Positions 2,703-27,545 of a DNA stretch of 34,007 bases are shown here, in pieces (the stretch's first letter is position 1; the number at the start of each line of letters is the position of its first letter). The notes under the pieces are model-generated. The model did not search any database and was not told where the DNA came from. It was given only the letters and a program-made list of their open reading frames with translations. The position numbers and the translations under genes were made by a program. This DNA is from Acidobacteriota bacterium (GTDB lineage Bacteria > Actinomycetota > Acidimicrobiia > Acidimicrobiales > RAAP-2): positions 1-34,007 of the forward strand of contig JABBNY010000004.1 of assembly GCA_019352095.1 (NCBI GenBank), given 5' to 3'.

Positions 2703-2780
2703 CCACGTCGCCGTCGTGGCGCTGTCTTCTGTAGAGTACGAAACGAGGCGCGACGCGTCCGTCAAGTATTGGGGGGAAGT

Positions 2781-3932: not shown

Positions 3933-5374
3933 GGCGCGAGGCGGCCCTGGCCCGCGAAGAAGTCGCGCAGGCGAAGTGACGAAGGAATCACGCGTGGTGT
4001 GAGCGCCTGGAGCGATCGATGTTCGATGGCTCCCTTGGTGACTCCTACGCAGTACGCAGCGTCGTCGAGTATCCCCAGTGCAATGTCCGACGGGCGGGGT
4101 CGCTGGTGGCGAAAGCGCCACGCCGTGCCCAGCGCGCAGATCACGAGTGCGGGCCCTCGCGCGCGGGATTTCACTGCGAGCAACAAGAGCAGCGGGCCGA
4201 AGTTTCGAACGAGCGAACGCGCGAACGCGCCTCCCCCCGTCAACATGGCGCGCCCCACGATCTCGTTGGCGACTGCGTCGGGTTGGTCGCTCTCAGAAAC
4301 GCGTGATCTGATCTGTCGACGTACGACACTCGCAATCCGTGCCGCGATCATCGGGCGACCCGCGCTGAGCGATACCCAGGTGGCGAGTGACCATACGTCG
4401 AATCGAACGGGGGCGAGTCGCTCACCGTGACGCTCGGCGAGCGCACCCGCGGACGATCCGTAGCTCACGCGCTGGGCGAACCATGTTCGCCAGTTCGTTC
4501 GCGCGCGATGCTGCACGCACACCGCGGCGTGATAGCGCACGAGCCATCCCCGGTCGTGCAATCGCCACACCAGGTCGACGTCCTCACCGAGTCGGAGGGC
4601 TTCGTCGAAGCCGTCACCAAAGGCCACTCGTCGCACCATGAGACAGGCACTCGGCACGAAGTTGACGTCGCCACCGGGCATAACGAGGTCTTCGTGGGGA
4701 CCGAGGTCCAAGGGACTGTAGCGCTCTTCGAACCGATCACGGAGGGTTGCTCCCTTGGCGCCCACGACCCTTGGCGCGCACGCCCCGATCAGCGGGTCCT
4801 GGAACTGTGCACTCAGACGTTGCAGGACCCCTCGCGCGTCATCGATTTCGACGTCGGCGTCGACGAAGCACACCAGGGGACGCGACGTCGCGCGAGCGCC
4901 GGCATTGCGCGCGCCGCCTGGCCCGAGATTGACGTCGAGTCGGATGAGGCTCACGCCGAAGTTGTCGGCGATCTCGTTGAGCAAGAGCGGGTCACGTGAT
5001 GCATCGTCGACGACCGTGACGTGAAGACCACGCAACTGGGTGAGCAACGCTCGCAGTGTGGCGATATTGTCGCGCACCGGGATGATCACGTCAATGTCGT
5101 CGATCACGAGTGGTCCGTGCAGCACCGGACGCACGATGCCGCGCTGGACGAGCGTACGGGCAAAACGTTCCTCTCCCACCCGCACGTGGCCCCCTTCCTG
5201 CCAGCGCTTCACGACCTCGGCCGACCCGCCCGCCAGTCGTAACACTCGCCACGGCGACCCGCCGATGATGAAGTCCCGGTCGACGATTTTCGAGTTGTCC
5301 TGCATGACCACTGGCGTGCCACTCGCCACCGGTGCGTCGAGGGGATCAGGCGCGAGGATCGAGAGTTCGCTCAT
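3929..5374 (-). CDS. mftF: Mycofactocin glycosyltransferase MftF
   Basis: A 481-aa protein from ATG 5374 (MSELSILAPDPL). The ORF track extends it to 5665, but that extension runs antisense through mftA and mftB and is not protein-like. Residues from about 92 form a family 2 glycosyltransferase fold: DVIIPVRDN, VTVVDDASRD, the metal-binding FVDADVEID and GEDVDLVWRLHDRGW. MftF is known to add beta-1,4-linked glucoses to the mature mycofactocin core. The first 90 or so residues (FIIGGSPWRVLRLAGG, FARTLVQRGIV) resemble the PqqD/MftB-like peptide recognition fold in pattern; that is inference. The gene is on the opposite strand from the rest of the locus. It starts 75 bases from mftA and ends overlapping the alcohol dehydrogenase, so the two promoters share a short divergent region. 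Confidence 0.92.
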   Translation of the reverse strand: MSELSILAPDPLDAPVASGTPVVMQDNSKIVDRDFIIGGSPWRVLRLAGGSAEVVKRWQEGGHVRVGEERFARTLVQRGIVRPVLHGPLVIDDIDVIIPVRDNIATLRALLTQLRGLHVTVVDDASRDPLLLNEIADNFGVSLIRLDVNLGPGGARNAGARATSRPLVCFVDADVEIDDARGVLQRLSAQFQDPLIGACAPRVVGAKGATLRDRFEERYSPLDLGPHEDLVMPGGDVNFVPSACLMVRRVAFGDGFDEALRLGEDVDLVWRLHDRGWLVRYHAAVCVQHRARTNWRTWFAQRVSYGSSAGALAERHGERLAPVRFDVWSLATWVSLSAGRPMIAARIASVVRRQIRSRVSESDQPDAVANEIVGRAMLTGGGAFARSLVRNFGPLLLLLAVKSRARGPALVICALGTAWRFRHQRPRPSDIALGILDDAAYCVGVTKGAIEHRSLQALTPRVIPSSLRLRDFFAGQGRLAP

Positions 5375-5449
5375 GGGCCAGTTTCTCACGGCGTGTCGGC
5401 GCGTGCGTTCGCAACGAGACAGAATGGGAGGAGACAATGAGGAGGGTAC

Positions 5450-5557
5450 GTGTCGACAGAAACGCTCATAGCGGATGAAGAGGTGGCGCAGATTGGCGAG
5501 AGCGAGGAATTGCTCGTCGAGGAGGTCTCCATCGACGGACTCTGCGGGGTCTACTAA
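5450..5557 (+). CDS. mftA: Mycofactocin precursor peptide MftA
   Basis: A 35-aa peptide too short for the ORF track. GTG 5450 follows the ribosome binding site GAGGAGGG by about 4 bases. The peptide starts MSTETLIADEEVAQ and ends LLVEEVSIDGLCGVY. The acidic leader and the C-terminal block match the mycofactocin precursor family, whose canonical end is IDGMCGVY; here Met is replaced by Leu. In the known pathway MftC decarboxylates the terminal Tyr and cross-links it to the preceding Val, and the two-residue product is released and processed to mycofactocin. mftB begins 3 bases after the stop, so mftABC are surely co-transcribed. Confidence 0.95.
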   Translation: MSTETLIADEEVAQIGESEELLVEEVSIDGLCGVY

Positions 5558-5560
5558 ATC

Positions 5561-5842
5561 GTGACGTTGTCGACGACGGACGTTTTTGACGCATCGGCGT
5601 CGTGGCAGCTCAGCGAGCAAGTTTCGTTGCGCGACGAAGCCTTCGGTGCACTGGCGTACCACCACGGCAATCGCCGTCTCGTCTTTTTGAAGTCACCTGA
5701 ACTCGTCGCCATTGTTCGCGGCTTGTCGCAGTTCTCGAGTGCCCACGAGGCGATTGACGCCTTCGTCGAGCCGTCTCGTCACGAGCGCTACGTCGCAGCT
5801 CTCTCCTCACTTTTCGCGTCAGAGTTGCTCAGTGGGCGCTGA
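5561..5842 (+). CDS. mftB: Mycofactocin peptide chaperone MftB
   Basis: A 93-aa protein from GTG 5561, 3 bases after the mftA stop and overlapping mftC by 11 bases, so it is translationally coupled to both. MftB is a small PqqD-like recognition-element protein that binds the MftA leader and presents it to MftC. The sequence fits: RLVFLKSPELVAIVRG resembles the beta-hairpin and first helix of such winged-helix domains, and RHERYVAALSSLFASELL the C-terminal helix. The fold alone is weakly conserved, so the assignment leans on position between an unmistakable mftA and mftC. No other function is plausible here. Confidence 0.92.
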   Translation: MTLSTTDVFDASASWQLSEQVSLRDEAFGALAYHHGNRRLVFLKSPELVAIVRGLSQFSSAHEAIDAFVEPSRHERYVAALSSLFASELLSGR

Positions 5843-6959
5843 CACGACGCTTCGCGATCGCTTCGAGCACGGTCTGGCCGCGCCGATCTGTCTCACGTGG
5901 GAGCTCACCTACGCGTGCAATCTTGCGTGCACGCACTGCCTCTCGTCCTCGGGTCGACGTGATCCGCTCGAGCTCTCGACGAACGAAGCCAAGGCGCTGA
6001 TCGACGAGATCGCGGCGATGCAGATCTTCTACATCAACATTGGTGGTGGCGAGCCGATGATCCGACGAGATTTCTTTGAACTCGTCGAACATGCAGTGAA
6101 TCAGAAGGTTGGCGTCAAATTCTCTACAAACGGCACTCGCATCGACGCGGCTGCCGCTCGACGTCTTGCGGCGATTGACTATCTCGACATACAGATCTCG
6201 ATCGACGGTGCCGATGCCGAGACGAGTGACCGGATTCGCGGCGCGGGCAGTTACGCCCAGGCCCGTAGGGCCATGGATCATCTGAAGGACGCGAATTTCG
6301 GCGAGTTCAAGATCTCGGTCGTGATGACCCGCGACAACATCGAACAACTCGATGAGTTCCAAGCGCTCGCGGCACACTACGGTGCCCAGTTGCGCCTGAC
6401 ACGTCTTCGTCCGTCGGGTCGTGGCGTTGAGGTCTGGGAGTCTTTGCACCCTACGCGCGAGCAGAACCGTCGGCTCTACGAATGGTTGCTCGAGCACCCC
6501 CAGGTTTTGACGGGGGATTCGTTCTTTCATCTTTCGGCGCTCGGCGATCCTCTCGATGGGCTTAACTTGTGTGGCGCAGGTCGCGTGGTGTGTTTGATCG
6601 ACCCGATTGGCGAGGTGTACGCCTGTCCGTTCGTCATCCACGATGAGTTCAAGGCCGGCAACGTACGTGAGTCGGGCTTCGGTCGCGTGTGGCGCGAAAG
6701 TCCGCTGTTCAAGTCACTGCGTGAGCCTGGTAACCCGGGTGCGTGCGTGTCGTGTGGTTCCTACGACGCCTGTCGAGGAGGCTGCATGGCGGCAAAATTC
6801 TTCACCGGGCTCGAGCTCAGTGACCCGGACCCCGAGTGCGTCTTTGGCCACGGCGAAACCGCGCTTGATGCGCGTCGCATGGTCCTTCGCCCGACCCCTT
6901 CGCCCGACCATTCCAAGAGTGTTGCGGTGAGGTTGGGATCTCGGAAGTCTCTCGTCTAG
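5832..6959 (+). CDS. mftC: Mycofactocin radical SAM maturase MftC
   Basis: A 375-aa protein from GTG 5832 (MGADTTLRDRF). The ORF track starts 120 bases earlier inside mftB and is rejected. The radical SAM cluster motif CNLACTHC gives Cys 29, 33 and 36. GGGEPMIRRDFFELVEHA is the SAM-binding GGE region. The C-terminal SPASM region carries further cysteines for auxiliary iron-sulfur clusters (CGAGRVVCLIDPIGEVYACPF, and CVSCGSYDACRGGCMA). MftC is known to perform oxidative decarboxylation of the MftA C-terminal tyrosine and then form a carbon-carbon bond to the penultimate valine. It is the third gene of a tight mftABC cluster. About 250 bases separate it from mftD, unlike the overlaps before it. 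Confidence 0.97.
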   Translation: MGADTTLRDRFEHGLAAPICLTWELTYACNLACTHCLSSSGRRDPLELSTNEAKALIDEIAAMQIFYINIGGGEPMIRRDFFELVEHAVNQKVGVKFSTNGTRIDAAAARRLAAIDYLDIQISIDGADAETSDRIRGAGSYAQARRAMDHLKDANFGEFKISVVMTRDNIEQLDEFQALAAHYGAQLRLTRLRPSGRGVEVWESLHPTREQNRRLYEWLLEHPQVLTGDSFFHLSALGDPLDGLNLCGAGRVVCLIDPIGEVYACPFVIHDEFKAGNVRESGFGRVWRESPLFKSLREPGNPGACVSCGSYDACRGGCMAAKFFTGLELSDPDPECVFGHGETALDARRMVLRPTPSPDHSKSVAVRLGSRKSLV

Positions 6960-7019
6960 CGCACTTGATGTCGCCGGACGTGGTCCCTTGGGGACTGGCC
7001 ATGGTGTGACTCGGCGGCC

Positions 7020-7151
7020 GTGCCACAACGCACAGCATTCGTCGATGCCCTGGAAGCACTCGGTCCTGCGCGCTCGACGCACTTGGGGGCGAAGACGCGC
7101 CGTGGGATCGCTGGCAACCGGCTGATCGGGATTGGCATCGTCAAGTTCTGA
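7020..7151 (+). CDS. Possible small ORF or gene remnant between mftC and mftD
   Basis: The 247-base gap between mftC and mftD contains an open frame (60 codons without a stop) ending at 7151. The only in-frame start of use is GTG 7020, giving 43 aa. The translation reads FVDALEALGPARSTHL and ends GNRLIGIGIVKF, which looks more like the end of a real protein than random sequence, and third codon positions are mostly G or C. There is only a weak GGCGG upstream. I do not recognise the family. It may be a small gene, or the last exonic scrap of a deleted gene in the mycofactocin locus. It could also be chance coding-like sequence. Confidence 0.3.
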   Translation: MPQRTAFVDALEALGPARSTHLGAKTRRGIAGNRLIGIGIVKF

Positions 7152-7206
7152 CCTGAAATATCGAATCGTCCTCCTGTAGTGTCGCAATGAGTCTTCTGGG
7201 GGGCCT

Positions 7207-8379
7207 ATGGCGAGCAAGTGGTTTGAGACAGTGGCCGTGGCGCAGCGACGCGCGAAAAAGCGCCTGCCCCGGTCGGTGTATGGAGCACTGATTGCGGGTT
7301 CCGAGAAGGGTCTCTCATCGAGTGACAACCTGAATTCCTTTGATCAATTGGGCTTCGCACCGCACATCGCGGGCCTCACCAAGGCTCGCGAGCTTTCGAC
7401 CACCGTGATGGGTCAATCGATGTCGATGCCGGTGATCATCTCGCCTACCGGTGTCCAGGCGGTGCACCCCGAAGGTGAAGTCGCGGTCGCTCGGGCCGCG
7501 GCGAACCGTGGCGTAGCAATGGGGCTCAGCTCGTTCGCGAGTCGTTCCCTTGAAGACGTGTGCGCCGAGCACAACCAGGTCCTGTTCCAGATGTACTGGT
7601 CGGGCTCTCGCGATGTGATGGTCCAGCGACTCGAGCGCGCCAAGGCGGCCGGCGCCAAGGGGATCATCCTCACTCTCGATTGGACGTTTTCAAACGGGCG
7701 CGATTGGGGCAGTCCGTGGATACCCGAAAAGATCAATCTACGGAACGCCTTGAAGTTGTCACCCGAGGCGTTGACCCGACCAGCGTGGTTGTGGTCGTTC
7801 ATGCGCTCGGGCCATCTGCCGGACCTCACGACGCCCAACATGGCACCCGTTGGTACCGCGGCACCGACGTTCTTCGGCGCTTACTACGAGTGGATGCAGA
7901 GTGAACTGCCAAGTTGGGACGACGTAGCCTGGCTGCGTTCGCAGTGGGACGGCCCGTTCATGGTGAAGGGCGTGAGCCGCATCGACGATGCGCGGCGCGT
8001 CGTCGATCTCGGCGCAACCGCATTGTCGGTGTCCAATCACGGGGGAAACAATCTCGACGGTACGCCCGCACCCATTCGATCCGTCTCAGCGATCGTCGAC
8101 GCGGTCGGTGACCAGATCGAAGTGGTGCTCGACGGAGGCGTGCGCCGCGGAAGCGACGTCGTCAAGGCCCTCGCCCTCGGGGCACGGGCGGTGATGATTG
8201 GTCGCGCGTATCTGTGGGGACTCGCCGCCAACGGCCAAGCGGGCGTCGAGAACGTTCTCGACATCGTGCGTGGCGGAATGGAAGCGACGCTGCTCGGACT
8301 GGGTAAATCCAGCGTGCACGACCTCGATCGCAACGACGTGGTGGCACCACCTGACTTCTTTCGAAAGTTGGGCGGATGA
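7207..8379 (+). CDS. mftD: Mycofactocin flavoprotein oxidase/dehydrogenase MftD
   Basis: A 390-aa protein from ATG 7207, preceded by GGGGGG at a usable distance. It belongs to the FMN-dependent alpha-hydroxy acid dehydrogenase family. VIISPTGVQAVHPEGEVAVAR, VMVQRLERAKAAGAKGIILTLD, the active-site region SNHGGNNLDGTPAPI (about residues 275-290) and VVLDGGVRRGSDVVKALALGA are visible. In mycofactocin biosynthesis MftD oxidatively deaminates the released aminated dipeptide-derived core to give the redox-active keto form. Position within the locus separates it from lactate dehydrogenases of the same fold. Its stop codon overlaps the ATG of the next gene (ATGA), so the SDR is co-expressed. It probably has its own promoter in the gap after mftC. 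Confidence 0.95.
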   Translation: MASKWFETVAVAQRRAKKRLPRSVYGALIAGSEKGLSSSDNLNSFDQLGFAPHIAGLTKARELSTTVMGQSMSMPVIISPTGVQAVHPEGEVAVARAAANRGVAMGLSSFASRSLEDVCAEHNQVLFQMYWSGSRDVMVQRLERAKAAGAKGIILTLDWTFSNGRDWGSPWIPEKINLRNALKLSPEALTRPAWLWSFMRSGHLPDLTTPNMAPVGTAAPTFFGAYYEWMQSELPSWDDVAWLRSQWDGPFMVKGVSRIDDARRVVDLGATALSVSNHGGNNLDGTPAPIRSVSAIVDAVGDQIEVVLDGGVRRGSDVVKALALGARAVMIGRAYLWGLAANGQAGVENVLDIVRGGMEATLLGLGKSSVHDLDRNDVVAPPDFFRKLGG

Positions 8380-9161
8380 AGCGCGTCGCCATTGTCACGG
8401 GCGCGGCGCGCGGTATAGGAGCTGCGACCGTCGACGCACTGGTCAACGATGACTACCAGATCGTGGCCGTTGACCGATGTCGCGACATACCAGAGGTCCC
8501 CTACGCCTTGGCCACGCCCGCAGACCTCGACGCGGTCGTAGCCCGCCACGGCGACGCCGTCCTAGGGCTCGTGGGAGACGTACGAAGTGCGAGCGACATG
8601 GCGCTCGCCGTGGAGACCGCGACTCGTCACTTCGGTCGTCTCGACGCGGTCGTGGCGTGCGCGGGAGTCATCGCCGCCGCCGGGCCGTCGTGGGAGATCA
8701 CCGATGCCGCCTGGGACGCGGTCTGGTCGGTCAACGTGCTGGGCACCCGACGTCTCTTACAAGCGGCGACGCCGACACTCATCTCGAACGGTCCCGATGC
8801 GCACAGCCGCATGGTCGCCGTGGCGTCCGCGGCGGGCAGCTCGGGTCTCTATCACCTTGCCGCGTATTCAGCCGCGAAGCACGCGGTGGTTGGCTTGGTG
8901 CGCGGGGTCGCGATGGACTTGGCCGAACACGGGATCACCGTGAATGCGGTGAGCCCCGGTTCGACCCGGACCGCCATTCTTCAGGCCTCCGCACAGGTCT
9001 ACGAACTCGAGAGTGAAGAGGACTTTGCAAAACATCAACCAATCGGACGCTTGATCGAGCCAAGTGAGGTGGCTGCCGCAATCGCGTGGCTGTGCTCGCC
9101 CGCGGCCTCGGCGATCACTGGTGCGGACGTGGCCGTTGATGGGGGCATGACCGTCTCGTAG
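8376..9161 (+). CDS. Mycofactocin-coupled short-chain dehydrogenase (SDR)
   Basis: A 261-aa short-chain dehydrogenase/reductase overlapping mftD by 4 bases. The cofactor motif TGAARGIG sits at residues 8-15 and the catalytic pair at Tyr164 and Lys168 (YSAAKHA). Between the second strand and the DVR motif there is an insertion, VPYALATPADLDAVV, of the kind that marks SDRs dependent on mycofactocin. In those enzymes the extra segment covers a nicotinamide cofactor that does not leave, so electrons must go to mycofactocin. The ending VDGGMTVS is normal for the family. Substrate is not predictable. This is the last gene of the mycofactocin locus in this window. Confidence 0.93.
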   Translation: MKRVAIVTGAARGIGAATVDALVNDDYQIVAVDRCRDIPEVPYALATPADLDAVVARHGDAVLGLVGDVRSASDMALAVETATRHFGRLDAVVACAGVIAAAGPSWEITDAAWDAVWSVNVLGTRRLLQAATPTLISNGPDAHSRMVAVASAAGSSGLYHLAAYSAAKHAVVGLVRGVAMDLAEHGITVNAVSPGSTRTAILQASAQVYELESEEDFAKHQPIGRLIEPSEVAAAIAWLCSPAASAITGADVAVDGGMTVS

Positions 9162-9581: not shown

Positions 9582-9610
9582 TTCAACTCTCAAGTGACTC
9601 TATATACCCT
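9582..9610 (+). promoter_or_regulatory. Putative promoter of the MMPL gene, -10 overlapping the operator
   Basis: TTCAAC at 9582-9587 and TACCCT at 9605-9610 are separated by 17 bases and follow an AT-rich stretch. The -10 candidate lies inside the left half of the CstR-type operator. The same geometry (TTGCGG, 17 bases, TACCCT) occurs at the sulfide:quinone oxidoreductase gene, which strengthens both calls. A start near 9617 would leave a leader of about 16 bases. Confidence 0.4.
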
Positions 9611-9632
9611 ATGGGGTATATAGAGTCACTTG
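9591..9632. promoter_or_regulatory. Perfect 19-4-19 palindrome with CstR/CsoR-type operator core
   Basis: The left arm CAAGTGACTCTATATACCC (9591-9609) and the right arm (9614-9632) are exact reverse complements around TATG. The core is ATACCC-TATG-GGGTAT, the layout of CsoR/CstR-family operators, and it matches the site at 12928-12943 exactly outside the spacer. The right arm ends on the base before ATG 9633, so a bound repressor would block the promoter. If transcribed, the palindrome could also fold over the start region. The arms extend well past the usual operator length. Confidence 0.7.
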
Positions 9633-11801
9633 ATGACTTTTCTCAAAGCCCCTACACCCGTACCCGAAAACATGGTCTACGACGACCCCGAACCAAATCC
9701 GGGTCCGCTCGGCAAGCTCGGCATGTGGTCGGTGAGCCACCGAAGGACGGTGTTCCTGGCCTGGATGGTTGTGGTCATCGTTCTCGGTATCTTCGCCCCC
9801 AATGTCGAAAAGGCCCTGAGCGGGGCAGGTTGGCAAGCCAACGGCACCCAGTCCGTCGCGGTACGGAACTTGGCCCAAGCCGACTTCCAGGGTCAGGCCA
9901 GTTCTTCGATTGAGGTCGTCATCAAGTCGACCCAGTCACTCAGCTCGGCGTCGGGTCAGGCGACCCTGCACCGAGTTGAGGTATTACTGAAGAAGGACCC
10001 CCGGATCAGCAAGGTCATCGCCCCCGTGCGCGGAGTGACGTTGAGTGCCAACGGCAAGACGGGTATCGTGCTCGCCGGTGCTGGCGCCGATCCGAACACG
10101 ATGGTGCGTGCGGCCGACGACCTGAAAGGTCCGCTCGCCAAGCTCGGTTCTTCGGGCACTACCGTCACCGCGACGGGCGCCTCGGTGCTGTGGTCGGACT
10201 TCAATACCGCTAACCGCACGGCCATGATGAAGTCAGAGATGTTCTCCTGGCCGGTGACCCTGGCAATCCTCGTGCTGGCCTTCGGGTCACTCGTTGCGGC
10301 GGGCTTGCCGTTGCTGTTGACCATGGCGGGACTGCTCAGCGCGGCCGGCATGCTCGACTTGTTGACCAAATTAACGCCCATCTCGATCTGGGCCATGAAC
10401 TTCGCGTTGATGTTCGCGCTGGCCCTCGGCATTGACTACGCGCTGTTCATTGTGGTCCGATTCCGTGGCGCGCACTTCGGTCGTCACCGTGACGTTCGAC
10501 ATTCAGTTGCTGAAACAATGGACTCCGCTGGCAAGGCTGTGCTGTTCTCGGGCATCACGGTACTGATCTCACTCTCGAGTGTGATGGTCGTGCCGTCGCC
10601 CGCATTTCAGTCCATGGCCGGAGGCATCATGCTGGCGGTGACGTTCGTACTCGCGGCGTCTCTCACGCTGTTGCCCGCCGTGCTCGGAAAACTCGGTGAC
10701 CGCGTCGACGCGCTCTCCCTGCCCTGGGTTCACGCCGGTGAGCACCGTTCGAAGCGTTTCGCCGCGTGGGGTGAACTCTTGTGGCGTCGACCGTTGGTCT
10801 TTGGTTCGTTGGCGCTGGTTGCTCTGCTGGCCCTCGCGATTCCAGTCATTGGACTTAAAACGGCCATGCCCTCGATCAAGGTGGTTCCCGCCACTGACGC
10901 GTCGCGCATGGGGTACGAGCAGGTCCAAAGGGCGTTCGGTATCGGCGCTCCTGGTCAACTCCAGATCATCGTGCCGGCCACCGAGTCGAGTGCCGCTCGT
11001 CAAGTACTCCAGCACGACAAGGGCGTCGCTGGGGTCATGCCGACCCAGTTCTCGACGAACGGCACCCACCTCGCACTTCTCGAGGTCGTGCCTACGGTTG
11101 ACCCGTCGAACCCCGCACTCGGCGTGACCATTGCGCGTCTACGCGTGGAACTGCCCTCGGGCAGTCTGGTCGGTGGCGCACCGGCGGAGAACTACGACCT
11201 GCAAAGGGCCCTGGCGGCAAAGACACCGGTCGTCATCGGCATGGTCCTGCTGCTCGGCTTCTTGCTGCTCGTCGTCGCGCTACGAGCTCTGCTGATCGCG
11301 GCGATCGGCGTCGTGACGAGTCTGCTCGCGACGGGGGGAGCCTTTGGGGTAGCGCGACTGGTGTTCCAGAACGGTGACGGCCACACGCTGCTCGGTTTTG
11401 TACCGCAGGGTTTCCTTGACGCGTGGGGGCCAGTGTTCTTTTTCGCCATGATCTTTGCGATCTCGATGGATTACACGGTGTTCCTGCTCTCGAGTGCCAA
11501 GGAGCACTATGAGGTATCCGGCGACGCCAAGGACGCCATGGTCAATGGCGTGGCGCACTCGGGTCGAGTCATCTTCTCGGCCGCCGCGGTGATGATCGCG
11601 GTGTTCTTCACCTTTGCGCTCTCGGGCCCGCTGCCCCCAAAGGAAATGGGCATCATTCTCGGCGTTGCGGTCTTTCTCGATGCATTCTTGGTCCGATTGG
11701 TTTTGGTACCGGTGCTGTTACGCCTGACTGGCAACGCCGCTTGGTGGCTACCGAGGTGGTTGGACAGGATCCTGCCGCGAGTGAGTTTCGCGCACGGTTG
11801 A
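9633..11801 (+). CDS. MMPL/RND-family membrane transporter
   Basis: A 722-aa membrane protein from ATG 9633; the ORF track uses the TTG 3 bases earlier. Later starts at 9672 or 9723 are possible because no clear Shine-Dalgarno is visible. The layout is classic MMPL: one N-terminal helix (TVFLAWMVVVIVLGIF), an extracytoplasmic domain and five helices with the proton-relay-like ALALGIDYALFIVVRFRG. A second extracytoplasmic domain and five helices with FAISMDYTVFLLSSAKE follow. Such transporters export lipids, siderophores or drugs using the proton gradient. The substrate is unknown. The operator palindrome at its start suggests control by the CstR-like repressor encoded 3 kb downstream, so a role in sulfur or redox stress is inferred. 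Confidence 0.9.
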   Translation: MTFLKAPTPVPENMVYDDPEPNPGPLGKLGMWSVSHRRTVFLAWMVVVIVLGIFAPNVEKALSGAGWQANGTQSVAVRNLAQADFQGQASSSIEVVIKSTQSLSSASGQATLHRVEVLLKKDPRISKVIAPVRGVTLSANGKTGIVLAGAGADPNTMVRAADDLKGPLAKLGSSGTTVTATGASVLWSDFNTANRTAMMKSEMFSWPVTLAILVLAFGSLVAAGLPLLLTMAGLLSAAGMLDLLTKLTPISIWAMNFALMFALALGIDYALFIVVRFRGAHFGRHRDVRHSVAETMDSAGKAVLFSGITVLISLSSVMVVPSPAFQSMAGGIMLAVTFVLAASLTLLPAVLGKLGDRVDALSLPWVHAGEHRSKRFAAWGELLWRRPLVFGSLALVALLALAIPVIGLKTAMPSIKVVPATDASRMGYEQVQRAFGIGAPGQLQIIVPATESSAARQVLQHDKGVAGVMPTQFSTNGTHLALLEVVPTVDPSNPALGVTIARLRVELPSGSLVGGAPAENYDLQRALAAKTPVVIGMVLLLGFLLLVVALRALLIAAIGVVTSLLATGGAFGVARLVFQNGDGHTLLGFVPQGFLDAWGPVFFFAMIFAISMDYTVFLLSSAKEHYEVSGDAKDAMVNGVAHSGRVIFSAAAVMIAVFFTFALSGPLPPKEMGIILGVAVFLDAFLVRLVLVPVLLRLTGNAAWWLPRWLDRILPRVSFAHG

Positions 11802-11812
11802 TCGGGATTCGA

Positions 11813-11851
11813 GCGGACCTCCTTGGGCAGGTGACACCCGAGGGGGTCCGC
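11813..11851. terminator. Stem-loop after MMPL gene (first of two)
   Basis: GCGGACCTCC at 11813-11822 pairs with GGGGGTCCGC at 11842-11851 with one mismatch and a 19-base loop. It lies 12 bases after the transporter stop, between convergent genes. There is no T run, so intrinsic termination is uncertain. Confidence 0.35.
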
Positions 11852-11871
11852 AAGAATGATGCTGGCCTAGT

Positions 11872-11915
11872 GGTGTTCCCTCTGATATTGAGGCGCAAGT
11901 GCCAGAGGGAACACC
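11872..11915. terminator. Perfect 13-bp stem-loop between convergent genes (second of two)
   Basis: GGTGTTCCCTCTG at 11872-11884 is exactly reverse-complementary to 11903-11915, with an 18-base loop. It lies midway between the convergent transporter and methyltransferase genes and could stop transcription or RNA decay from both sides. No flanking T or A run is present. Confidence 0.45.
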
Positions 11916-11943
11916 TCCGTCAGGCCGGGCAGCGAAGTGGTTT

Positions 11944-12651
11944 CTAGACTCGTGTGCCAACGCCGAACTGGAAATAGTCCTTGGTTTCGTGCACGCTGAC
12001 CTCGAGTCCGGCGTGGCGGCACTTCTCTTCGAGCACAGGCCCATCCCAGAAGTTCTTGTAGATACTGAACTCTCGACCGTCGTCGAGACGGCGGGTCATT
12101 ATTTCTTGATCGTCGAAAGGAAGGACGTGATCTGACGCGGTGCTCGTTGGTTCTCTACGAGCGTCGAGGAAGAACACCGCGCCGCCGAGGGTGAGCATCG
12201 TCGCGACCCTTGAGAGAAATTCATCAATGCGACGCGTTGGAATATGGCTGAGCCAGAAGCAAAAGACGACTGCATCGAATTCCTCGGTCGGGAGCCACTC
12301 GAACAGGTCGGCCTCAACGAAGGTCACCTTGCCCGCGCGCGCACCGAGTCGCTCGCGATTCAGCGCGATCATCTCGCTTGAGGCGTCGACTGCCGTGAGG
12401 TGAGCGACTCGATCACAGAGTGCCTCGGTCCAAATTCCGGTGCCCGGCGCCAACTCGAGCACGTTCTTGTCGTCGAGTGGGAGGCTGCTCAGGACGTCGC
12501 GGACTTCTTCTATCTGCGCAAACCAGCGCTGAGTAGCGTCTTCACCTCGGTCGTAGCGTCCAAGGCGCAAGAACCAATCGTCATACTCGTTCGCGCGCGC
12601 TCGGTAGTACAGGATCTGCCCTTCCAGCACGCTGGCTTCGTCGTCAGTCAT
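11944..12651 (-). CDS. Class I SAM-dependent methyltransferase
   Basis: A 235-aa protein from ATG 12651 (MTDDEASVLEGQILYYRARA). The ORF track extends 49 codons upstream into noncoding sequence. The SAM-binding motif I is NVLELAPGTGIW (about residues 63-74), followed by LTAVDASSEMIALNRERL as the acidic second motif and FDAVVFCFWLSHIP as motif IV. The N-terminal YYRARANEYDDWF is common in small-molecule methyltransferases of this type. The target is unknown. It sits inside the sulfide/persulfide island, convergent with the transporter and divergent from the oxidoreductase. A thiol or other small sulfur substrate is possible but unproven. Confidence 0.85.
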   Translation of the reverse strand: MTDDEASVLEGQILYYRARANEYDDWFLRLGRYDRGEDATQRWFAQIEEVRDVLSSLPLDDKNVLELAPGTGIWTEALCDRVAHLTAVDASSEMIALNRERLGARAGKVTFVEADLFEWLPTEEFDAVVFCFWLSHIPTRRIDEFLSRVATMLTLGGAVFFLDARREPTSTASDHVLPFDDQEIMTRRLDDGREFSIYKNFWDGPVLEEKCRHAGLEVSVHETKDYFQFGVGTRV

Positions 12652-12905
12652 GCTCGCCACCGTACCTGAAGCCGGGTCAAAGACTCTTCTGTGGCGCGCA
12701 CGACATGCGGACTGCTGGTGATGGCGAGCTGTAACACAGAACGGGTCGTGTCCTTGGAGGGAGGTGACTGTCGAGCGGCTCTTCAGTGGCATTCCCAAGA
12801 GTGCTGGGTGGGCGTTGTTTCACCGGGCACGAAATCGCTCGAGATTCCTGATGGAGCTGCGTTTGCGGGTTGCAGGCGTTCGTCACACGTTTGAGCACAA
12901 ACGAC
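12652..12905. other. Noncoding region between methyltransferase and SQR-like gene
   Basis: With the operator and leader that follow, the divergent gap is about 350 bases. Apart from the promoter and operator near 12906-12944 I see no gene or strong hairpin. The very long minus-strand ORF 12677-14443 that covers it is a shadow of the oxidoreductase gene. Confidence 0.5.
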
Positions 12906-12934
12906 TTGCGGACCCGCCGAGTTAGTGATACCCT
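12906..12934 (+). promoter_or_regulatory. Putative promoter of the SQR-like gene
   Basis: TTGCGG at 12906-12911 and TACCCT at 12929-12934 are spaced by 17 bases, with the -10 hexamer inside the CstR-type operator. The arrangement is identical to that at 9582-9610. Repressor binding would occlude the -10 region. Confidence 0.45.
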
Positions 12935-12944
12935 AGGGGGTATC
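12927..12944. promoter_or_regulatory. CstR/CsoR-type operator at SQR-like gene
   Basis: GATACCC-TAGG-GGGTATC is a perfect 7-4-7 inverted repeat and shares the ATACCC-N4-GGGTAT core with the palindrome at 9604-9619. It lies 60 bases before the ATG of the oxidoreductase gene. Confidence 0.75.
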
Positions 12945-13003
12945 CAAAAAGGGGTCGTCGAGATGACGTGAGTACCCGTACTTGGAAGAGAAAGAGGTTT
13001 GCG

Positions 13004-14458
13004 ATGGCACGAGTAGTGGTCTTGGGGGCAGGCATCTCTGGTCACACCGCGGCGCTGCACCTTCGCCGACTGCTCTCCAAAGAGCACGAGGTCGTCGTCG
13101 TGTCTCCTAATTCGAAGTGGAACTGGATTCCATCGAACATCTGGGTGGGCGTCGGCAAGATGAGCACCAAACAGGTCACCTTTCCCTTGGCACCGATCTA
13201 CAAGCGCAAGGGGATCGTGTTCCACCAGGCCCTGGGCATCGAGCTTCACCCGGAGGGCACTGCAGATGGGTCGCACCCCTACGTTCGAGTGCGCTACACG
13301 GACCCCACACGGGTTGGTGAAGAGGCCAACCTCGAGTACGACTACTTGATCAACGCCACTGGTCCAAAGTTGAACTTCGCCGCCACGCCTGGTCTCGGCC
13401 CTGACGCCAACACCGTCTCGGTGTGCACGGCGGGCCATGCGGTTGAGGCCTCCAAGGCACTCGACGAGGTCATTGAGAAGATGAAGAAGGGCGAACGCCA
13501 GAAGCTCGTCGTCGGCGTCGGCCACGGTACGTGTACCTGTGAAGGTGCGGCCTTTGAGTACACGTTTAACGTCGAGCACGAACTTCGCGCCGCGGGCGTG
13601 CGCGATATGGCGGACCTGACGTACCTGACCAACGAATACGAGTTGGGAGATTTCGGTGTCGGCGGTATGACCTTCAGCCAAGGCGGGCTCGAGACGAGCA
13701 GCAAACTCTGGACCGAGTCGCTCTTTCGCGAACGCGGGGTGAAGGCCGTCCTGCAGTCCCACGTGGAGAAGGTTGAGCCGGGTGAGATTCACTACGAACA
13801 ACTCGACGGTTCCAAGAACACGCTGTCGTTCGATTTCGCAATGTTGCTCCCACCATTTCGTGGTGCTGACATGAAGGCCTTCAACAACGCCGGCGAGGAC
13901 ATCACCGCGGACGTCTTCGCACCCAACGGGTTCATGCGTGTTGACGCTGACTACACCGCCAAGCCCTACGACGAGTGGCGCGCCGCTGACTGGCCGCACA
14001 CCTACGAGAGCGCGCACTATGCGAACGTCTTCGGGGTGGGCATCGCCTTCGCGCCGCCTCACCCGATCTCGCGGCCGCGCACGAGTCCCAACGGCACCGT
14101 GATCTCCCCGGCGCCACCGCGCACGGGCATGCCCTCTGGCGTGATGGGCAAGACCGTGGCGTTGACCATTGTCTCGCGCATCAAGTTGGGTACGACGACA
14201 GCGTCGCACCGCGCCTCGATGGCCGATATGGGCGCATCGTGCGTGGCGTCGGCCGGCACCGGGCTCTTGCACGGTTCGGCCGCGGCGATGACGATGTACC
14301 CGATTGTGCCCGATTTCGAGAAGTACCCCACGGGCCGCAGCCAGAAGGACACCTTCGGTGAAATCGGTTTGGCCGGGCACTGGATCAAGTTCATGTTGCA
14401 TTTCTTGTTCATCTACAAGGCCAAGGCTCGCCCCTTTTGGCACTTGATCCCCGAATAG
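13004..14458 (+). CDS. Sulfide:quinone oxidoreductase-like flavoprotein
   Basis: A 484-aa FAD protein of the SQR/flavocytochrome c family. ATG 13004 follows GAAAGAGG; the ORF track start at 12968 is too early. The FAD motif VVVLGAGISGHTAALHL is at the N-terminus. Three cysteine positions match the SQR catalytic set by context: Cys141 (SVCTAGHA), Cys177/Cys179 (HGTCTCEGAAFEY) and Cys413 (GASCVASAGTG). The C-terminal HWIKFMLHFLFIYKAKARPFW looks like the amphipathic membrane-docking helices of SQR. The enzyme would oxidise sulfide at the inner face of the membrane, pass electrons to quinone and yield persulfide or polysulfide. An operator for a persulfide sensor precedes it and persulfide-processing genes follow. 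The exact SQR type is not assigned. Confidence 0.82.
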   Translation: MARVVVLGAGISGHTAALHLRRLLSKEHEVVVVSPNSKWNWIPSNIWVGVGKMSTKQVTFPLAPIYKRKGIVFHQALGIELHPEGTADGSHPYVRVRYTDPTRVGEEANLEYDYLINATGPKLNFAATPGLGPDANTVSVCTAGHAVEASKALDEVIEKMKKGERQKLVVGVGHGTCTCEGAAFEYTFNVEHELRAAGVRDMADLTYLTNEYELGDFGVGGMTFSQGGLETSSKLWTESLFRERGVKAVLQSHVEKVEPGEIHYEQLDGSKNTLSFDFAMLLPPFRGADMKAFNNAGEDITADVFAPNGFMRVDADYTAKPYDEWRAADWPHTYESAHYANVFGVGIAFAPPHPISRPRTSPNGTVISPAPPRTGMPSGVMGKTVALTIVSRIKLGTTTASHRASMADMGASCVASAGTGLLHGSAAAMTMYPIVPDFEKYPTGRSQKDTFGEIGLAGHWIKFMLHFLFIYKAKARPFWHLIPE

Positions 14459-14483
14459 TCAGCCCGAGCAGAAAGGACATCAC

Positions 14484-14630
14484 ATGGACAACGCCGAAGC
14501 CAGTATCGCCAGCGCTCCGCTCCCGACTCTCGCGACCTCGCGCCGTCGTAACAACCTGTTTTTTCAGTTGTGGCGGTTCATCGCACTCAACGTTCGCATG
14601 GCCTCAATGATCTTGAAGGGTGATCACTGA
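14484..14630 (+). CDS. Small 48-aa protein downstream of SQR-like gene
   Basis: An unlisted ORF from ATG 14484, with the ribosome binding site GAAAGGA 7 bases upstream and 25 bases after the oxidoreductase stop. The product begins MDNAEASIASAPLPTLATS, then RRRNN, then a hydrophobic and amphipathic stretch LFFQLWRFIALNVRMASMIL and the end KGDH. One membrane-associated helix is likely. I do not know a named family. Position and spacing suggest co-expression with the oxidoreductase, perhaps as an accessory or membrane-anchoring peptide. Confidence 0.65.
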   Translation: MDNAEASIASAPLPTLATSRRRNNLFFQLWRFIALNVRMASMILKGDH

Positions 14631-14644
14631 TGGCATCGTGCGCT

Positions 14645-14660
14645 ACACCCCGGGGGGTAC
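14645..14660. promoter_or_regulatory. Degenerate CstR/CsoR-type operator before the repressor gene
   Basis: ACACCC-CGGG-GGGTAC has the same 6-4-6 layout as the other two sites, with one change in each half. It lies 32 bases before the repressor ATG, which suggests weaker autoregulation. Confidence 0.6.
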
Positions 14661-14692: not shown

Positions 14693-14980
14693 ATGAACGA
14701 TGCAACCACCACCCACGCCCTCAACGACGAGCAGCAACTCAACGCCATCGTGAAACGCGTGAAGCGCGCCCACGGACAAATGGGTGCAGTCGTACGAATG
14801 CTCGAAGAGGGCCGCTCCTGCGAGGAAGTCGTCACCCAGATGGCCGCAGTCAGTAAGGCCATCAACACAGCGGCATTCACATTGATCTCATCGAGTCTGA
14901 AGGAATGCATCTCAGACCCGACGTCTAACAGTGACGAAGTCACACAGAAGCTACAGAAGCTCTTCTTGAGCCTGGCGTAA
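14693..14980 (+). CDS. cstR: CsoR/CstR-family repressor, probably persulfide-sensing
   Basis: A 95-aa all-helical repressor of the CsoR/RcnR family. ATG 14693 follows GAAAGG; starting at 14630 would translate the operator. The family core is visible: IVKRVKRAHGQMGAVVRMLEEGRSC, then EVVTQMAAVSKAINTAAFTL. Two cysteines, Cys43 and Cys72, have the 29-residue spacing of the paired cysteines in both CsoR and CstR. The histidine that completes the copper site of CsoR (four residues before the second Cys) is Ser68 here, so copper sensing is unlikely. A Cys-Cys pair that reacts with persulfides, as in CstR, is the better model. The neighbours (SQR-like and rhodanese genes) agree. The next gene starts 8 bases downstream. 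Confidence 0.85.
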   Translation: MNDATTTHALNDEQQLNAIVKRVKRAHGQMGAVVRMLEEGRSCEEVVTQMAAVSKAINTAAFTLISSSLKECISDPTSNSDEVTQKLQKLFLSLA

Positions 14981-14988
14981 GGAGAAGT

Positions 14989-16644
14989 ATGAAAGTCATC
15001 ATTATTGAGGGCGTAGCGGGGGGCATGTCTACCGCAACTCGACTTCGACGTCTGATGGATGATGCGGAGATTGTCGTCTACGAAAAGAGCGGCTTCGTGT
15101 CGTACGCGAACTGCGGTCTGCCCTACTTCGTGGGTGGCGTGATCCAAGACGAGGCGTCATTGCTCTTGCAGACGCCGACGTCGCTCTACGAGCGGTTTCG
15201 AATCGACGTCCGCGTGAATCACGAGGTGACGTCGATCAACGCCGAAGAACGCACGGTGACGGTGATCGACCACACGACGGGTCACGGCGAGACAACGGGG
15301 TATGACGTCCTGGTCTTGAGCCCTGGTGCGTCCGCGGTGGTGCCACCGATTGAGGGTATCGAGCGGGCGATGGCGCTGCGCACGGTCGAAGACGTCGAGA
15401 AGATCGTCGCGGTTACGGATGAGAACCCCGCGAACGCGGTTGTGATCGGGGGCGGCTTCATTGGCGTGGAGATCGCCGAGAACTTGGTGCACCGCGGTAT
15501 TTCGACCAGCGTCGTCGAAGCCTCGGGACAAGTCCTCGCACCACTCGACCTCGAAATGGCGGAGCTGGTCGCGGACGAAATGCGCCGAAAGGGCGTGTCA
15601 CTCTTTTTGAACGAGTCGGTAGTGCGCATTGACGAACGGGGTGTTGAACTCTCCTCGGGTGACTTTGTCGCGGGTGATCTCGTGATCGTCGCTATTGGCG
15701 TGCGCCCCGAGACCGGCCTGGCCCGGGGTGCGGGACTCGCCATTGGCGAGCGCGGCGGTATCGCCGTCGACGAATTCAATCGCACGAGTGTTGCCAACAT
15801 CTACGCGATCGGTGACGCAGCAGAAAAGCGTGACGCGCTCGACTCGAGCGCGACACTGGTGCCGCTCGCCAACATCGCAAATCGACAGGGCCGCGTCGTG
15901 GCGGACCACATCGCGGGACTCGAAGTGCGACCCCTCGCTACCATCGGGACCGCAATTGTGAAGGTGTTCGACCTCACGATCGCCGCGACCGGCTGGAACG
16001 AAAAGCGTCTGCGCGCGATGGGCCACTCGCCACTCATCATCCACACGCACCCCTCGTCGCACGCGGGCTATTTCCCCGGCGCGAAGCAGATGGCACTCAA
16101 GTTACTGATCAATCGTTCGACCGGCGCCATCTACGGCGCCCAGGGTGTTGGTACCGAGGGCGTCGACAAGCGCATCGACGTGCTCGCGACCGCCATACGA
16201 GCCGGCATCACCGCCCCCGAGTTGGCTGACCTCGAGCTGGCGTACGCGCCGCCCTTTGGATCGGCGAAGGACCCGGTGAACATGCTCGGCTACATCGCCG
16301 AGAACCTGCTGAGCGGACTTGAAGAGAACGTCCAATGGTACGAACTCGACGAATACCGCGCCGAAGGCGTCGCCATGATTGATGTGCGCTCGGTGAGCGA
16401 GTTCGCTCGCGGTTCAATACCGGGCGCTTTGAATATCCCCTTGGACGAGTTGCGGGTTCGATTCGACGAGATCCTGACACGCGACGTCATCGTCAATTGT
16501 CAAGTGGGCCAGCGCGGTCACGTGGCCACCCAACTTCTCAACCAGAACGGCTTCAAGGCAAAGAATCTCGACGGTGGTTATCTGACCTGGAGCAAGTCTC
16601 CCGCGTCACGCCCACTCGAGCTCGCTGGCGCAAGCCACGACTGA
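14989..16644 (+). CDS. CoA-disulfide reductase with C-terminal rhodanese domain
   Basis: A 551-aa fusion protein starting at ATG 14989, with TAAGGAGAA just upstream overlapping the repressor stop. Residues 1 to about 450 form an NAD(P)H/FAD disulfide reductase of the CoADR family, with the single active-site cysteine Cys42 in SYANCGLPYFVGG, a second nucleotide motif VVIGGGFIGVEIAE, and FAD motif IYAIGDAAE. The last 100 residues are a rhodanese domain with MIDVRSVSEFARGSIPGA and the active-site loop NCQVGQRG (Cys504). Such fusions reduce CoA persulfide, CoA polysulfide or polysulfide. This fits downstream of a persulfide-generating SQR and next to a persulfide-sensing repressor. It shares a transcript with cstR. 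Confidence 0.93.
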   Translation: MKVIIIEGVAGGMSTATRLRRLMDDAEIVVYEKSGFVSYANCGLPYFVGGVIQDEASLLLQTPTSLYERFRIDVRVNHEVTSINAEERTVTVIDHTTGHGETTGYDVLVLSPGASAVVPPIEGIERAMALRTVEDVEKIVAVTDENPANAVVIGGGFIGVEIAENLVHRGISTSVVEASGQVLAPLDLEMAELVADEMRRKGVSLFLNESVVRIDERGVELSSGDFVAGDLVIVAIGVRPETGLARGAGLAIGERGGIAVDEFNRTSVANIYAIGDAAEKRDALDSSATLVPLANIANRQGRVVADHIAGLEVRPLATIGTAIVKVFDLTIAATGWNEKRLRAMGHSPLIIHTHPSSHAGYFPGAKQMALKLLINRSTGAIYGAQGVGTEGVDKRIDVLATAIRAGITAPELADLELAYAPPFGSAKDPVNMLGYIAENLLSGLEENVQWYELDEYRAEGVAMIDVRSVSEFARGSIPGALNIPLDELRVRFDEILTRDVIVNCQVGQRGHVATQLLNQNGFKAKNLDGGYLTWSKSPASRPLELAGASHD

Positions 16645-17700: not shown

Positions 17701-19098
17701 ATGAACTCACTAGTCGCTGGCATTTCAACCTTGTCACTCGCGCGTTGGCAGTTCGCGGTGACGACGGTGTTTCACTTCTTGTTCGTTCCACTCACCATCG
17801 GCCTCGGCTTGTTGGTGGCTGTTCTGCAGACCGCGGCGTATAGGACCAAGGACTTGGCCTACGACCGCATGACCAAATTCTTCGGGAAACTCTTTCTCGT
17901 CAACTTCGCCATCGGGGTGGTCACCGGTATCGTTCAGGAATTCCAGTTCGGCATGGACTGGTCGCGCTACTCAGTGTTCGTAGGCAACATCTTTGGAGCG
18001 CCTCTCGCGATCGAGGGGCTGCTGGCATTCTTCATGGAGTCCACCTTCCTCGGGATTTGGATCTTCGGCCGAGGTCGCGTGAGTGCGCGCATCCACCTCT
18101 TGTCGATCTGGCTGGCCAGTCTGGGCACGATCCTGTCGGCCGCATTCATCGTGGCGGCGAACTCCTGGATGCAACACCCGGTTGGCTACACCATCGATCC
18201 GAAGACCCACCAGGCGGTCATGACGAACTTCTGGGCCGTGATGACCAATTCGACGTTCATCGCGGCCTACGGTCACGTGCTGGCGTCCGCATTCCTCACG
18301 GGGGCGGTCTTCATGCTCGCTATCGCAGCGTGGCACCTGCGCAAAGGGCACGACCTCGCGGGTTTCGCGAAGGCGGCTCGCATCGCGATCGTGGTGACCG
18401 TGCTGGCGGCGGTAGCGACGATGTTCCTTGGCGACACTCAGGCGAAGCAGATGACGAAGCAGCAGCCCATGAAGATGGCCGCCGCCGAGGCGCTCTACAA
18501 CACGTCGACCGGCGCGAGTTTCTCACTGCTCACCATTGGTGATCTCTCGGGCAACGCGCTCTTCCAGATTCGCCTGCCGCACCTCTTGAGCGTGCTGGCC
18601 ACCAACTCATGGAACGGAAAGGTCGAGGGAATCAATCAACTGCAAAAGCAGTACGAGCAGCAGTACGGCCCGGGCAGTTACGTGCCGATGATATGGCTCA
18701 CGTATTGGTCGTTTCGCATCATGGTCGGGTTGGGCATCTTGCTCTTTGCCCTCGGTGGTGTTGCCCTCTGGCTGGTACGCAAGCGTCGTCTTGAGAAGTC
18801 GCCACGATTCTTGCGCTTCGCGACCTGGATGGTGCTGGCGCCGTTCCTCGCCAATAGTTTCGGCTGGATCTTCACCGAAATCGGTCGCCAGCCGTGGGTG
18901 GTGTACGGACTCTTGAAGACGTCGAACGCCACGTCACCCATCGCACCGGGCTACGTCGCAACGAGTCTCATTGGCTTCACGGCGATCTACTCGTTGCTCG
19001 CCGTCGTGGAGATCGGACTGATGCTTCGCATCGCCAAAGTTCCGCCGGCCATTGAAACACCCGAGGAAGCCGAACGCGCTCCTGAGCTCATCTACTAG
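17701..19098 (+). CDS. cydA: Cytochrome bd oxidase subunit I
   Basis: A 465-aa integral membrane protein from ATG 17701 with AAGGTGAG upstream. His25 in TVFHFLFVPLTIG corresponds to the heme b595 ligand region of CydA, AYGHVLASAFLTGAVF to the second conserved His region, and EIGRQPWVVYGLLKT is the diagnostic GRQPW motif. The quinol-binding loop between TM6 and TM7 is of the short type (GDTQAKQMTKQQPMKMAAAEALY). The enzyme oxidises quinol and reduces oxygen to water with high affinity. It heads a cydABDC cluster and lies just after the sulfide island. No operator of the CstR type is visible in the 58-base gap before it. Confidence 0.97.
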   Translation: MNSLVAGISTLSLARWQFAVTTVFHFLFVPLTIGLGLLVAVLQTAAYRTKDLAYDRMTKFFGKLFLVNFAIGVVTGIVQEFQFGMDWSRYSVFVGNIFGAPLAIEGLLAFFMESTFLGIWIFGRGRVSARIHLLSIWLASLGTILSAAFIVAANSWMQHPVGYTIDPKTHQAVMTNFWAVMTNSTFIAAYGHVLASAFLTGAVFMLAIAAWHLRKGHDLAGFAKAARIAIVVTVLAAVATMFLGDTQAKQMTKQQPMKMAAAEALYNTSTGASFSLLTIGDLSGNALFQIRLPHLLSVLATNSWNGKVEGINQLQKQYEQQYGPGSYVPMIWLTYWSFRIMVGLGILLFALGGVALWLVRKRRLEKSPRFLRFATWMVLAPFLANSFGWIFTEIGRQPWVVYGLLKTSNATSPIAPGYVATSLIGFTAIYSLLAVVEIGLMLRIAKVPPAIETPEEAERAPELIY

Positions 19099-19109
19099 GA
19101 GGACCGGAC

Positions 19110-27538: not shown

Positions 27539-27545
27539 TGCGCTC

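What the first reader, a model, noticed from the sequence alone, without database searches (positions are those of the whole stretch)
9604..14660. Three-site regulon joining an MMPL transporter to sulfide oxidation
ATACCC-N4-GGGTAT occurs exactly at 9604-9619 and 12928-12943, and in degenerate form at 14645-14660, in front of the transporter, the SQR-like gene and the repressor itself. Two share the same -35/-10 geometry. An RND-type transporter under a persulfide-sensing repressor would suggest export of a sulfur compound or a lipid in response to sulfide, which I have not seen described.
Basis: partly seen in the sequence, partly recalled or inferred. Interest (0 to 1): 0.65.

Follow-up and report, generated by a model that had tools for sequence, protein, structure and literature searches.

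The report
Persulfide-regulated, cysteine-free MMPL transporter in Actinomycetota
A membrane pump of the family that exports lipids in tuberculosis bacteria is, across a large part of the Actinomycetota, wired into the genetic circuit that detoxifies hydrogen sulfide, and it has almost completely lost the sulfur amino acid cysteine; this points to an undescribed export arm of bacterial sulfide defence whose cargo can now be tested.

Summary
The motif is real and not chance. ATACCC-N4-GGGTAT occurs six times in the 2.87 Mb genome (about 0.1 expected), always before a sulfur/thiol gene, the repressor or the MMPL gene; in nine related genomes 32 exact sites against 0 for the reversed pattern. It equals the operator of the proven persulfide sensor of Streptomyces coelicolor (ATACC-N6-GGTAT). 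The repressor is CstR-type: two cysteines, no copper-binding histidine.

The MMPL link holds far beyond this window. Of 80 named orthologues (Acidimicrobiia, Nocardioides, Streptomyces/Kitasatospora, Actinomadura, Nocardia, Solirubrobacterales) 35 carry the operator (0-1 mismatch) upstream, 50 lie near a CsoR-family gene (nearly all CstR-type), and many share operons with persulfide dioxygenase, rhodanese, TauE or SQR. MMPL paralogues: 0 of 28 operators, 0 of 20 CstR neighbours.

Unexpected: the clade is practically cysteine-free (74 of 80 have none; paralogues average 3), while both proton-relay Asp-Tyr pairs are invariant.

Most likely: a proton-driven, MmpL3-like exporter, repressed by CstR and induced by persulfide, clearing a reactive sulfur species (or sulfur-damaged lipid) from the membrane. 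Regulation is well supported by comparison; cargo is inferred; nothing was measured. Not described in the open literature searched. New variant of a known kind.

The parts
9604..9619 (.). CstR-type operator 1 (ATACCCTATGGGGTAT), 13 bp before the MMPL start codon
   Evidence: exact match; exact or 1-mismatch site at the same place before orthologues
9590..9633 (.). 44-bp perfect palindrome (20-bp arms, 4-bp centre) around operator 1, reaching into the ATG of the MMPL gene
   Evidence: the repeat finder; not shared by the closest relative, L062
9633..11801 (+). MMPL/RND transporter, 722 aa, no cysteine, invariant D268-Y269 and D613-Y614
   Evidence: Pfam MMPL E=4e-58; AF2 model pLDDT 87, best PDB match MmpL3 7nvh TM 0.85; alignment A2
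12928..12943 (.). CstR-type operator 2 (ATACCCTAGGGGGTAT), before SQR
   Evidence: exact match; conserved in L062
13004..14458 (+). sulfide:quinone oxidoreductase, 484 aa, with cysteines 141, 177, 179 and 413
   Evidence: best PDB matches are SQRs 3hyv 2e-35 and 3sz0 1e-33; cysteines
14645..14660 (.). degenerate operator 3 (ACACCCCGGGGGGTAC), 32 bp before the repressor gene
   Evidence: 2 mismatches; identical in L062
14693..14980 (+). CstR-type repressor, 95 aa, CsoR/RcnR family
   Evidence: Pfam Trns_repr_metal 6e-21; best PDB hit 7mq1; Cys/Ser/Cys at the Cu-CsoR Cys/His/Cys positions
14989..16644 (+). CoA-disulfide/persulfide reductase fused to rhodanese, downstream of cstR
   Evidence: PDB 3icr 3e-166 and 8a56 'Coenzyme A-persulfide reductase' 4e-163; Pfam rhodanese

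Best explanation
The window holds the core of a CstR-type persulfide regulon. In the resting cell the reduced repressor (14693-14980) sits on ATACCC-N4-GGGTAT and keeps the MMPL gene, SQR, the CoA-persulfide reductase/rhodanese and, elsewhere in the genome, a second CstR-reductase operon, a rhodanese, a thioredoxin and a TlpA-CcdA pair shut. Sulfide is oxidised to persulfide/polysulfide, this modifies the two repressor cysteines, the repressor leaves, and all units are switched on together. The MMPL protein is a proton-driven, MmpL3-like exporter that works as the efflux arm of this response and most likely removes a sulfane-sulfur-bearing hydrophobic compound (polysulfane or elemental sulfur, a persulfidated thiol conjugate or a sulfur-damaged lipid) from the inner membrane. 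Shown by comparison: operator, regulon, CstR-type sensor residues, conserved linkage, conserved proton-relay residues, cysteine exclusion. Inferred: derepression by persulfide in this organism, direction of transport, cargo. My estimates: MMPL is a CstR-regulon member 0.92; proton-driven exporter 0.8; cargo contains sulfur 0.45.
For: Genome-wide: 6 exact sites, all before the repressor/reductase, SQR, MMPL, rhodanese, thioredoxin or TlpA-CcdA; 32 exact sites in nine genomes against 0 reversed, by inspection all next to MMPL, SQR, CstR/reductase, thioredoxin, rhodanese, DUF302, TlpA-CcdA, and in one case a PIG-L deacetylase. Conservation: exact or 1-mismatch sites near all 11 relatives' orthologues at 38-83% identity, in one of them before the cstR-MMPL pair; 26 exact + 9 one-mismatch before 80 named orthologues, with 31 exact sites in 40 kb upstream against 19 in 1.18 Mb elsewhere, p=2e-33. 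Linkage: CsoR-family gene near 50 of 80, persulfide dioxygenase 17, TauE 19, rhodanese 17, YgaP-like 40, DUF302 35; paralogue control 0 of 20 for CsoR. Sensor: 57 of 59 linked repressors have Cys/non-His/Cys. Operator equals S. coelicolor ScCsoR's ATACC-N6-GGTAT, released by polysulfide (PMC7533328). Transporter: Asp-Tyr pairs in 80 of 80, MmpL3 fold. Cysteine: 7 Cys in about 70,000 aa of 100 orthologues against 3.0 per protein in 28 paralogues and 0.6 per 100 aa in 94 neighbouring membrane proteins. Tree: clade separate from paralogues, support 99.
Against: No expression, binding or transport data. 17 of 80 orthologue loci have an ArsR regulator instead and no CstR operator, so CstR control is not universal. 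Some orthologue loci in Nocardioides lack a site close to the MMPL gene (it sits in a longer operon or none was seen). Characterised MmpL proteins carry lipids and siderophores, not small sulfur species (established knowledge). Cysteine absence could be inherited or reflect exposure rather than cargo; 5 of 28 paralogue stretches also have none. The 80 orthologues are related to each other, so the p-values overstate independence.
Confidence: 0.7

Rival explanations
1. Same regulon, but the cargo is an ordinary envelope lipid: persulfide stress induces an MmpL3-like lipid flippase/exporter that remodels or repairs the envelope, and cysteine loss merely protects the pump in a persulfide-rich setting.
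For: Closest fold is MmpL3, a lipid exporter; MMPL proteins mostly carry lipidic cargo (established knowledge).
Against: No lipid-synthesis gene recurs beside the orthologues; the recurrent partners are persulfide dioxygenase, TauE, rhodanese, YgaP, SQR and DsrE/DsrC. Lineages with very different envelopes share it.
Confidence: 0.35
2. The sites are copper CsoR operators and the MMPL belongs to copper homeostasis.
For: The S. lividans Cu-CsoR operator ATATACCCCTNAGGGGTATAT is nearly the same (PMC3902906); four His-type CsoR paralogues exist in this genome.
Against: Spacing: S. lividans Cu-CsoR sites are described as TAC-X9-GTA, while these are X8, the width of the sulfane-sulfur sensor site. 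In this genome the X8 form occurs only at sulfur/thiol genes, repressor or MMPL, and an X9 form lies before a His-type CsoR gene on C134. The linked repressors lack the copper histidine. No copper ATPase family recurs in the orthologue neighbourhoods.
Confidence: 0.04
3. The MMPL belongs with the mycofactocin genes directly upstream, for example as their exporter, and the operator is incidental.
For: MftC, MftD and a mycofactocin-coupled SDR lie directly upstream in the window; MftD/SDR also lie upstream in G001, G004, L068, L071 and L079.
Against: Only 3 of 80 named orthologue loci have MftD/SDR, all close relatives; in G017 and G003 the mft genes sit beside CstR genes instead. The operator follows the MMPL gene in lineages without them.
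Confidence: 0.03
4. Chance or passive linkage: the motif near MMPL is coincidental.
For: Two-mismatch matches are common.
Against: Exact sites are not expected by chance, are enriched about 48-fold upstream of orthologues, and 0 of 28 paralogues have one.
Confidence: 0.01

Closest known systems
Streptomyces coelicolor ScCsoR sulfane-sulfur circuit (PMC7533328)
   Same: CsoR-family persulfide sensor with two cysteines, operator ATACC-N6-GGTAT, controls persulfide dioxygenase, rhodanese, TauE and itself
   Different: No MMPL transporter; here SQR, CoA-persulfide reductase, thioredoxin and an MMPL gene join the regulon
Staphylococcus aureus CstR / cst operon
   Same: Per/polysulfide sensor controlling sulfurtransferase, persulfide dioxygenase and SQR (PMC5480029)
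   Different: No RND/MMPL pump found in that paper's account of it
Mycobacterial MmpL3 (trehalose monomycolate exporter)
   Same: Fold (TM 0.85 to 7nvh), aligned Asp-Tyr proton-relay positions
   Different: About 22-24% identity; no C-terminal extension; cysteine-free; persulfide regulon; scores 197 bits against an equivalog cut-off of 1400 for MmpL3
RND pumps noted near ArsR-type sulfane-sulfur repressors (sHdrR relatives, PMC12423496)
   Same: RND efflux genes named among likely targets of sulfane-sulfur repressors
   Different: ArsR not CstR; RND in general, no MMPL named; no function shown

Membership tests
CstR-type persulfide sensor (CsoR/RcnR family) | CsoR/RcnR (DUF156) domain | tested here: met
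   Pfam PF02583 6e-21; PDB 7mq1 1.9e-10
CstR-type persulfide sensor (CsoR/RcnR family) | two conserved cysteines, no histidine at the Cu-CsoR position | tested here: met
   Cys/Ser/Cys in the window; 57 of 59 repressors linked to orthologues are Cys/G,S,N/Cys
CstR-type persulfide sensor (CsoR/RcnR family) | operator ATACC-N6-GGTAT before sulfur genes | tested here: met
   reference operator
CstR-type persulfide sensor (CsoR/RcnR family) | release from DNA by per/polysulfide | not testable with these tools
   needs a binding assay
copper-sensing CsoR | Cys-His-Cys copper site | tested here: not met
   Ser in place of His
copper-sensing CsoR | operator with TAC-X9-GTA spacing | tested here: not met
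   X8 at both exact sites; an X9 site lies at another CsoR gene, C134
MMPL/RND transporter | MMPL domain and RND fold | tested here: met
   4.1e-58; MmpL3 TM 0.85
MMPL/RND transporter | Asp-Tyr proton-relay pairs in the transmembrane core | tested here: met
   GIDY and MDY in 80 of 80, aligned with MmpL3 DY positions
MmpL3 trehalose monomycolate exporter | NCBIfam equivalog score | tested here: not met
   197 bits against cut-off 1400
sulfide:quinone oxidoreductase | homology to solved SQRs with redox cysteines | tested here: met
   3hyv 2e-35; two of the window's cysteines (C141 and the C177/C179 pair) align at or next to SQR cysteines, the third (C413) lies outside the alignment

The most novel reading that the evidence does not exclude
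The clade is a dedicated, cysteine-free RND exporter of sulfane sulfur (polysulfane, elemental sulfur or persulfidated thiol/lipid) in Actinomycetota, the missing efflux arm of persulfide homeostasis, run by CstR in most lineages and by a C-X3-C ArsR repressor in others.
Probability: 0.4. Interest if true: 0.8.

Novelty: new variant of a known kind. Interest (0 to 1): 0.66.

Why it matters
Bacterial persulfide regulons are known for enzymes that oxidise or reduce sulfane sulfur and for a sulfite exporter; an RND pump conserved across a phylum in the same regulon, stripped of cysteine, implies that a reactive or sulfur-damaged product is also exported. It gives a family of unassigned MMPL transporters a physiological context and a short list of candidate cargos. 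It occurs in culturable genera (Nocardioides, Streptomyces, Kitasatospora, Actinomadura), so the idea can be tested directly.

Tried and rejected
Copper CsoR control (sensor residues, operator spacing, regulon content against it). Mycofactocin link (limited to close relatives). Chance. Sigma-70 promoter geometry (nothing at the sites). Reading the 44-bp palindrome as part of the operator: not shared by the 91% identical relative. It also scores as a terminator-like hairpin, but it runs into the start codon, so I do not read it as one. Literature: CstR+MMPL, MMPL+sulfane sulfur, MMPL+persulfide dioxygenase, MmpL+CsoR+sulfide gave no relevant paper; the library holds open papers only, so an undetected description is possible.

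Full report
Observation. The claimed common -35/-10 geometry was not reproduced.

Is it chance? In the whole assembly (2.87 Mb, 308 contigs, 89% complete) there are six exact sites; base composition predicts about 0.13 and the reversed pattern gives none. The four outside the window lie before a second CstR-type repressor/reductase operon (C38), a TlpA/CcdA pair (C119), a rhodanese (C173) and a thioredoxin (C262). In nine genomes of the genus there are 32 exact sites against 0 for the reversed pattern. By my reading of the neighbourhoods all lie next to MMPL, SQR, CstR/reductase, thioredoxin, rhodanese, DUF302 or TlpA-CcdA genes, and one next to a PIG-L deacetylase. These nine genomes were chosen because they carry the MMPL gene.

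Which sensor? Seven CsoR-family genes lie in the genome. The window's repressor and that on C38 have two cysteines and Ser or Gly at the position of the copper histidine; those on C28, C144, C188 (one of two) and C134 have His there. The N4 (X8) spacing equals the ATACC-N6-GGTAT site of S. coelicolor ScCsoR, which polysulfide removes from DNA through two cysteines (PMC7533328), while the S. lividans copper CsoR sites are described as TAC-X9-GTA (PMC3902906). Here the X8 form is confined to sulfur/thiol genes, the repressor and MMPL, and an X9 form lies before the His-type gene on C134. Best PDB match of the repressor is 7mq1, filed as csoR; I recall it as a streptococcal CstR, which is memory and not a test.

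Does the link with MMPL hold elsewhere? All eleven relatives with an orthologue (38-83% identity) have an exact or one-mismatch site nearby, in G028 before the cstR-MMPL pair; in G005 the MMPL gene is followed by cstR, in G027 it is divergent from it. Twenty-six have an exact and nine a one-mismatch site within 450 bp upstream; 31 exact sites fall in 40 kb of upstream sequence against 19 in 1.18 Mb elsewhere, p=2e-33, not corrected for relatedness. Within 6.5 kb, 50 of 80 have a CsoR-family gene, 40 a YgaP-like gene, 35 DUF302, 24 an ArsR regulator, 19 TauE, 17 persulfide dioxygenase with rhodanese, 17 a separate rhodanese, 9 SQR and 7 DsrE with DsrC (families by Pfam; the persulfide dioxygenase label rests on the rhodanese domain plus a metallo-beta-lactamase-like sequence read by eye). 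In several Nocardioides, rhodanese, persulfide dioxygenase, TauE, MMPL and YgaP run in one direction. Of 59 linked CsoR-family proteins in the combined set, 57 have the CstR residue pattern. Controls: 28 MMPL paralogue loci have no site even with two mismatches, and around 20 paralogues there is no CsoR-family gene and hardly any sulfur gene. An even sample of the phylum finds the orthologue in 31 of 391 good genomes, and its neighbourhoods show the same two regulators. A maximum-likelihood tree separates the clade from the paralogues (support 99; one partial paralogue sits on a long branch beside it).

Two regulators. Where no CstR is found, an ArsR protein with VFxLCExVCGG (C-X3-C) often takes its place: 17 of 80 loci have ArsR only and none of these has a CstR operator. 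It is not tested whether that ArsR senses persulfide.

An unexpected feature. The orthologues are practically cysteine-free: 74 of 80 have none and six have one; in the phylum sample 19 of 20 have none; 28 paralogue stretches average 3.0 (0.43 per 100 aa, five with none); 94 other membrane-like neighbours have 0.60 per 100 aa. The five deeper relatives that also carry the operator have 0, 0, 0, 0 and 1. At 65% median pairwise identity sequence divergence would easily have admitted cysteines, so I read this as selection against them, as expected for a pump that meets persulfide or polysulfide. Relatedness among the sequences weakens any formal p-value.

What the protein is. An AlphaFold2 model (pLDDT 87) matches MmpL3 best (7nvh, TM 0.85, 24% identity). 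The Asp-Tyr pairs that align with the MmpL3 proton relay (D268-Y269, D613-Y614) are present in all 80. It is not an MmpL3 by NCBIfam cut-off.

Mechanism. CstR represses by sitting on, or next to, the start region of each unit (inference from position). Sulfide is turned by SQR into persulfide or polysulfide, which modifies the repressor and opens all units; reductase, rhodanese, thioredoxin and dioxygenase handle the soluble pool, TauE exports sulfite, and the MMPL pump is best explained as the exit for a membrane-soluble product. Lipid cargo is the main rival. A glutathione polysulfide exporter is known in mitochondria (ABC type, PMC4156053, abstract), so export of bound sulfane sulfur has a precedent in another family.

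Novelty. No paper in the open library links MMPL with CstR, persulfide dioxygenase or sulfane sulfur. The nearest is a remark that RND pumps occur among likely targets of ArsR-type sulfane-sulfur repressors (PMC12423496). The regulon type and the transporter family are known; their conserved union and the cysteine exclusion appear to be new.

Limits. The window is from a fragmented draft assembly; gene calls and neighbour profiles are my own scripts with profiles built from the loci themselves; subscription literature was not searched; nothing was measured.

Noticed in passing
window 9590-9633; L058 1199-1214 (G000:C38); L049 9137-9152 (G017): Three operators of this genus are the centres of long perfect palindromes (20-, 23- and 24-bp arms) with unrelated arm sequences; at the MMPL site the closest orthologue (L062) lacks it. 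Recent template-switch copying of a quasipalindrome would explain it; assembly artefact is not excluded.
   Followed up: partly
L099, L093, L087, L109, L139 and others, beside MMPL: An ArsR subfamily with a conserved C-X3-C near the C-terminus (VFxLCExVCGG) replaces CstR beside the MMPL gene in Solirubrobacterales/Thermoleophilia and other lineages; possible thiol or persulfide sensor.
   Followed up: partly
window 5712-9161: Mycofactocin genes (MftC, MftD, mycofactocin-coupled SDR) lie directly before the MMPL gene, an NDMA-dependent alcohol dehydrogenase at 2769-3932 and a probable glycosyltransferase on the minus strand at 3929-5665. In relatives G017 and G003 MftD-SDR adjoin CstR genes instead.
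   Followed up: partly
35 of 80 orthologue loci, e.g. L100 7379-7819: DUF302 proteins of unknown function recur in this regulon's neighbourhoods.
   Followed up: no
L203 5494-6189 (G005) and L204 349-1680 (G004): A PIG-L type deacetylase follows an exact operator in G005; a similar protein lies downstream of thioredoxin in G004. It could be a low-molecular-weight thiol enzyme of the regulon.
   Followed up: no
window 14484-14630: A 48-codon ORF between SQR and the repressor gene, not analysed further.
   Followed up: no
window 17701-23444 and 23667-30825: A cydABDC-like run and an apparent cobalamin uptake/salvage run (read by eye only) follow the sulfur genes.
   Followed up: no
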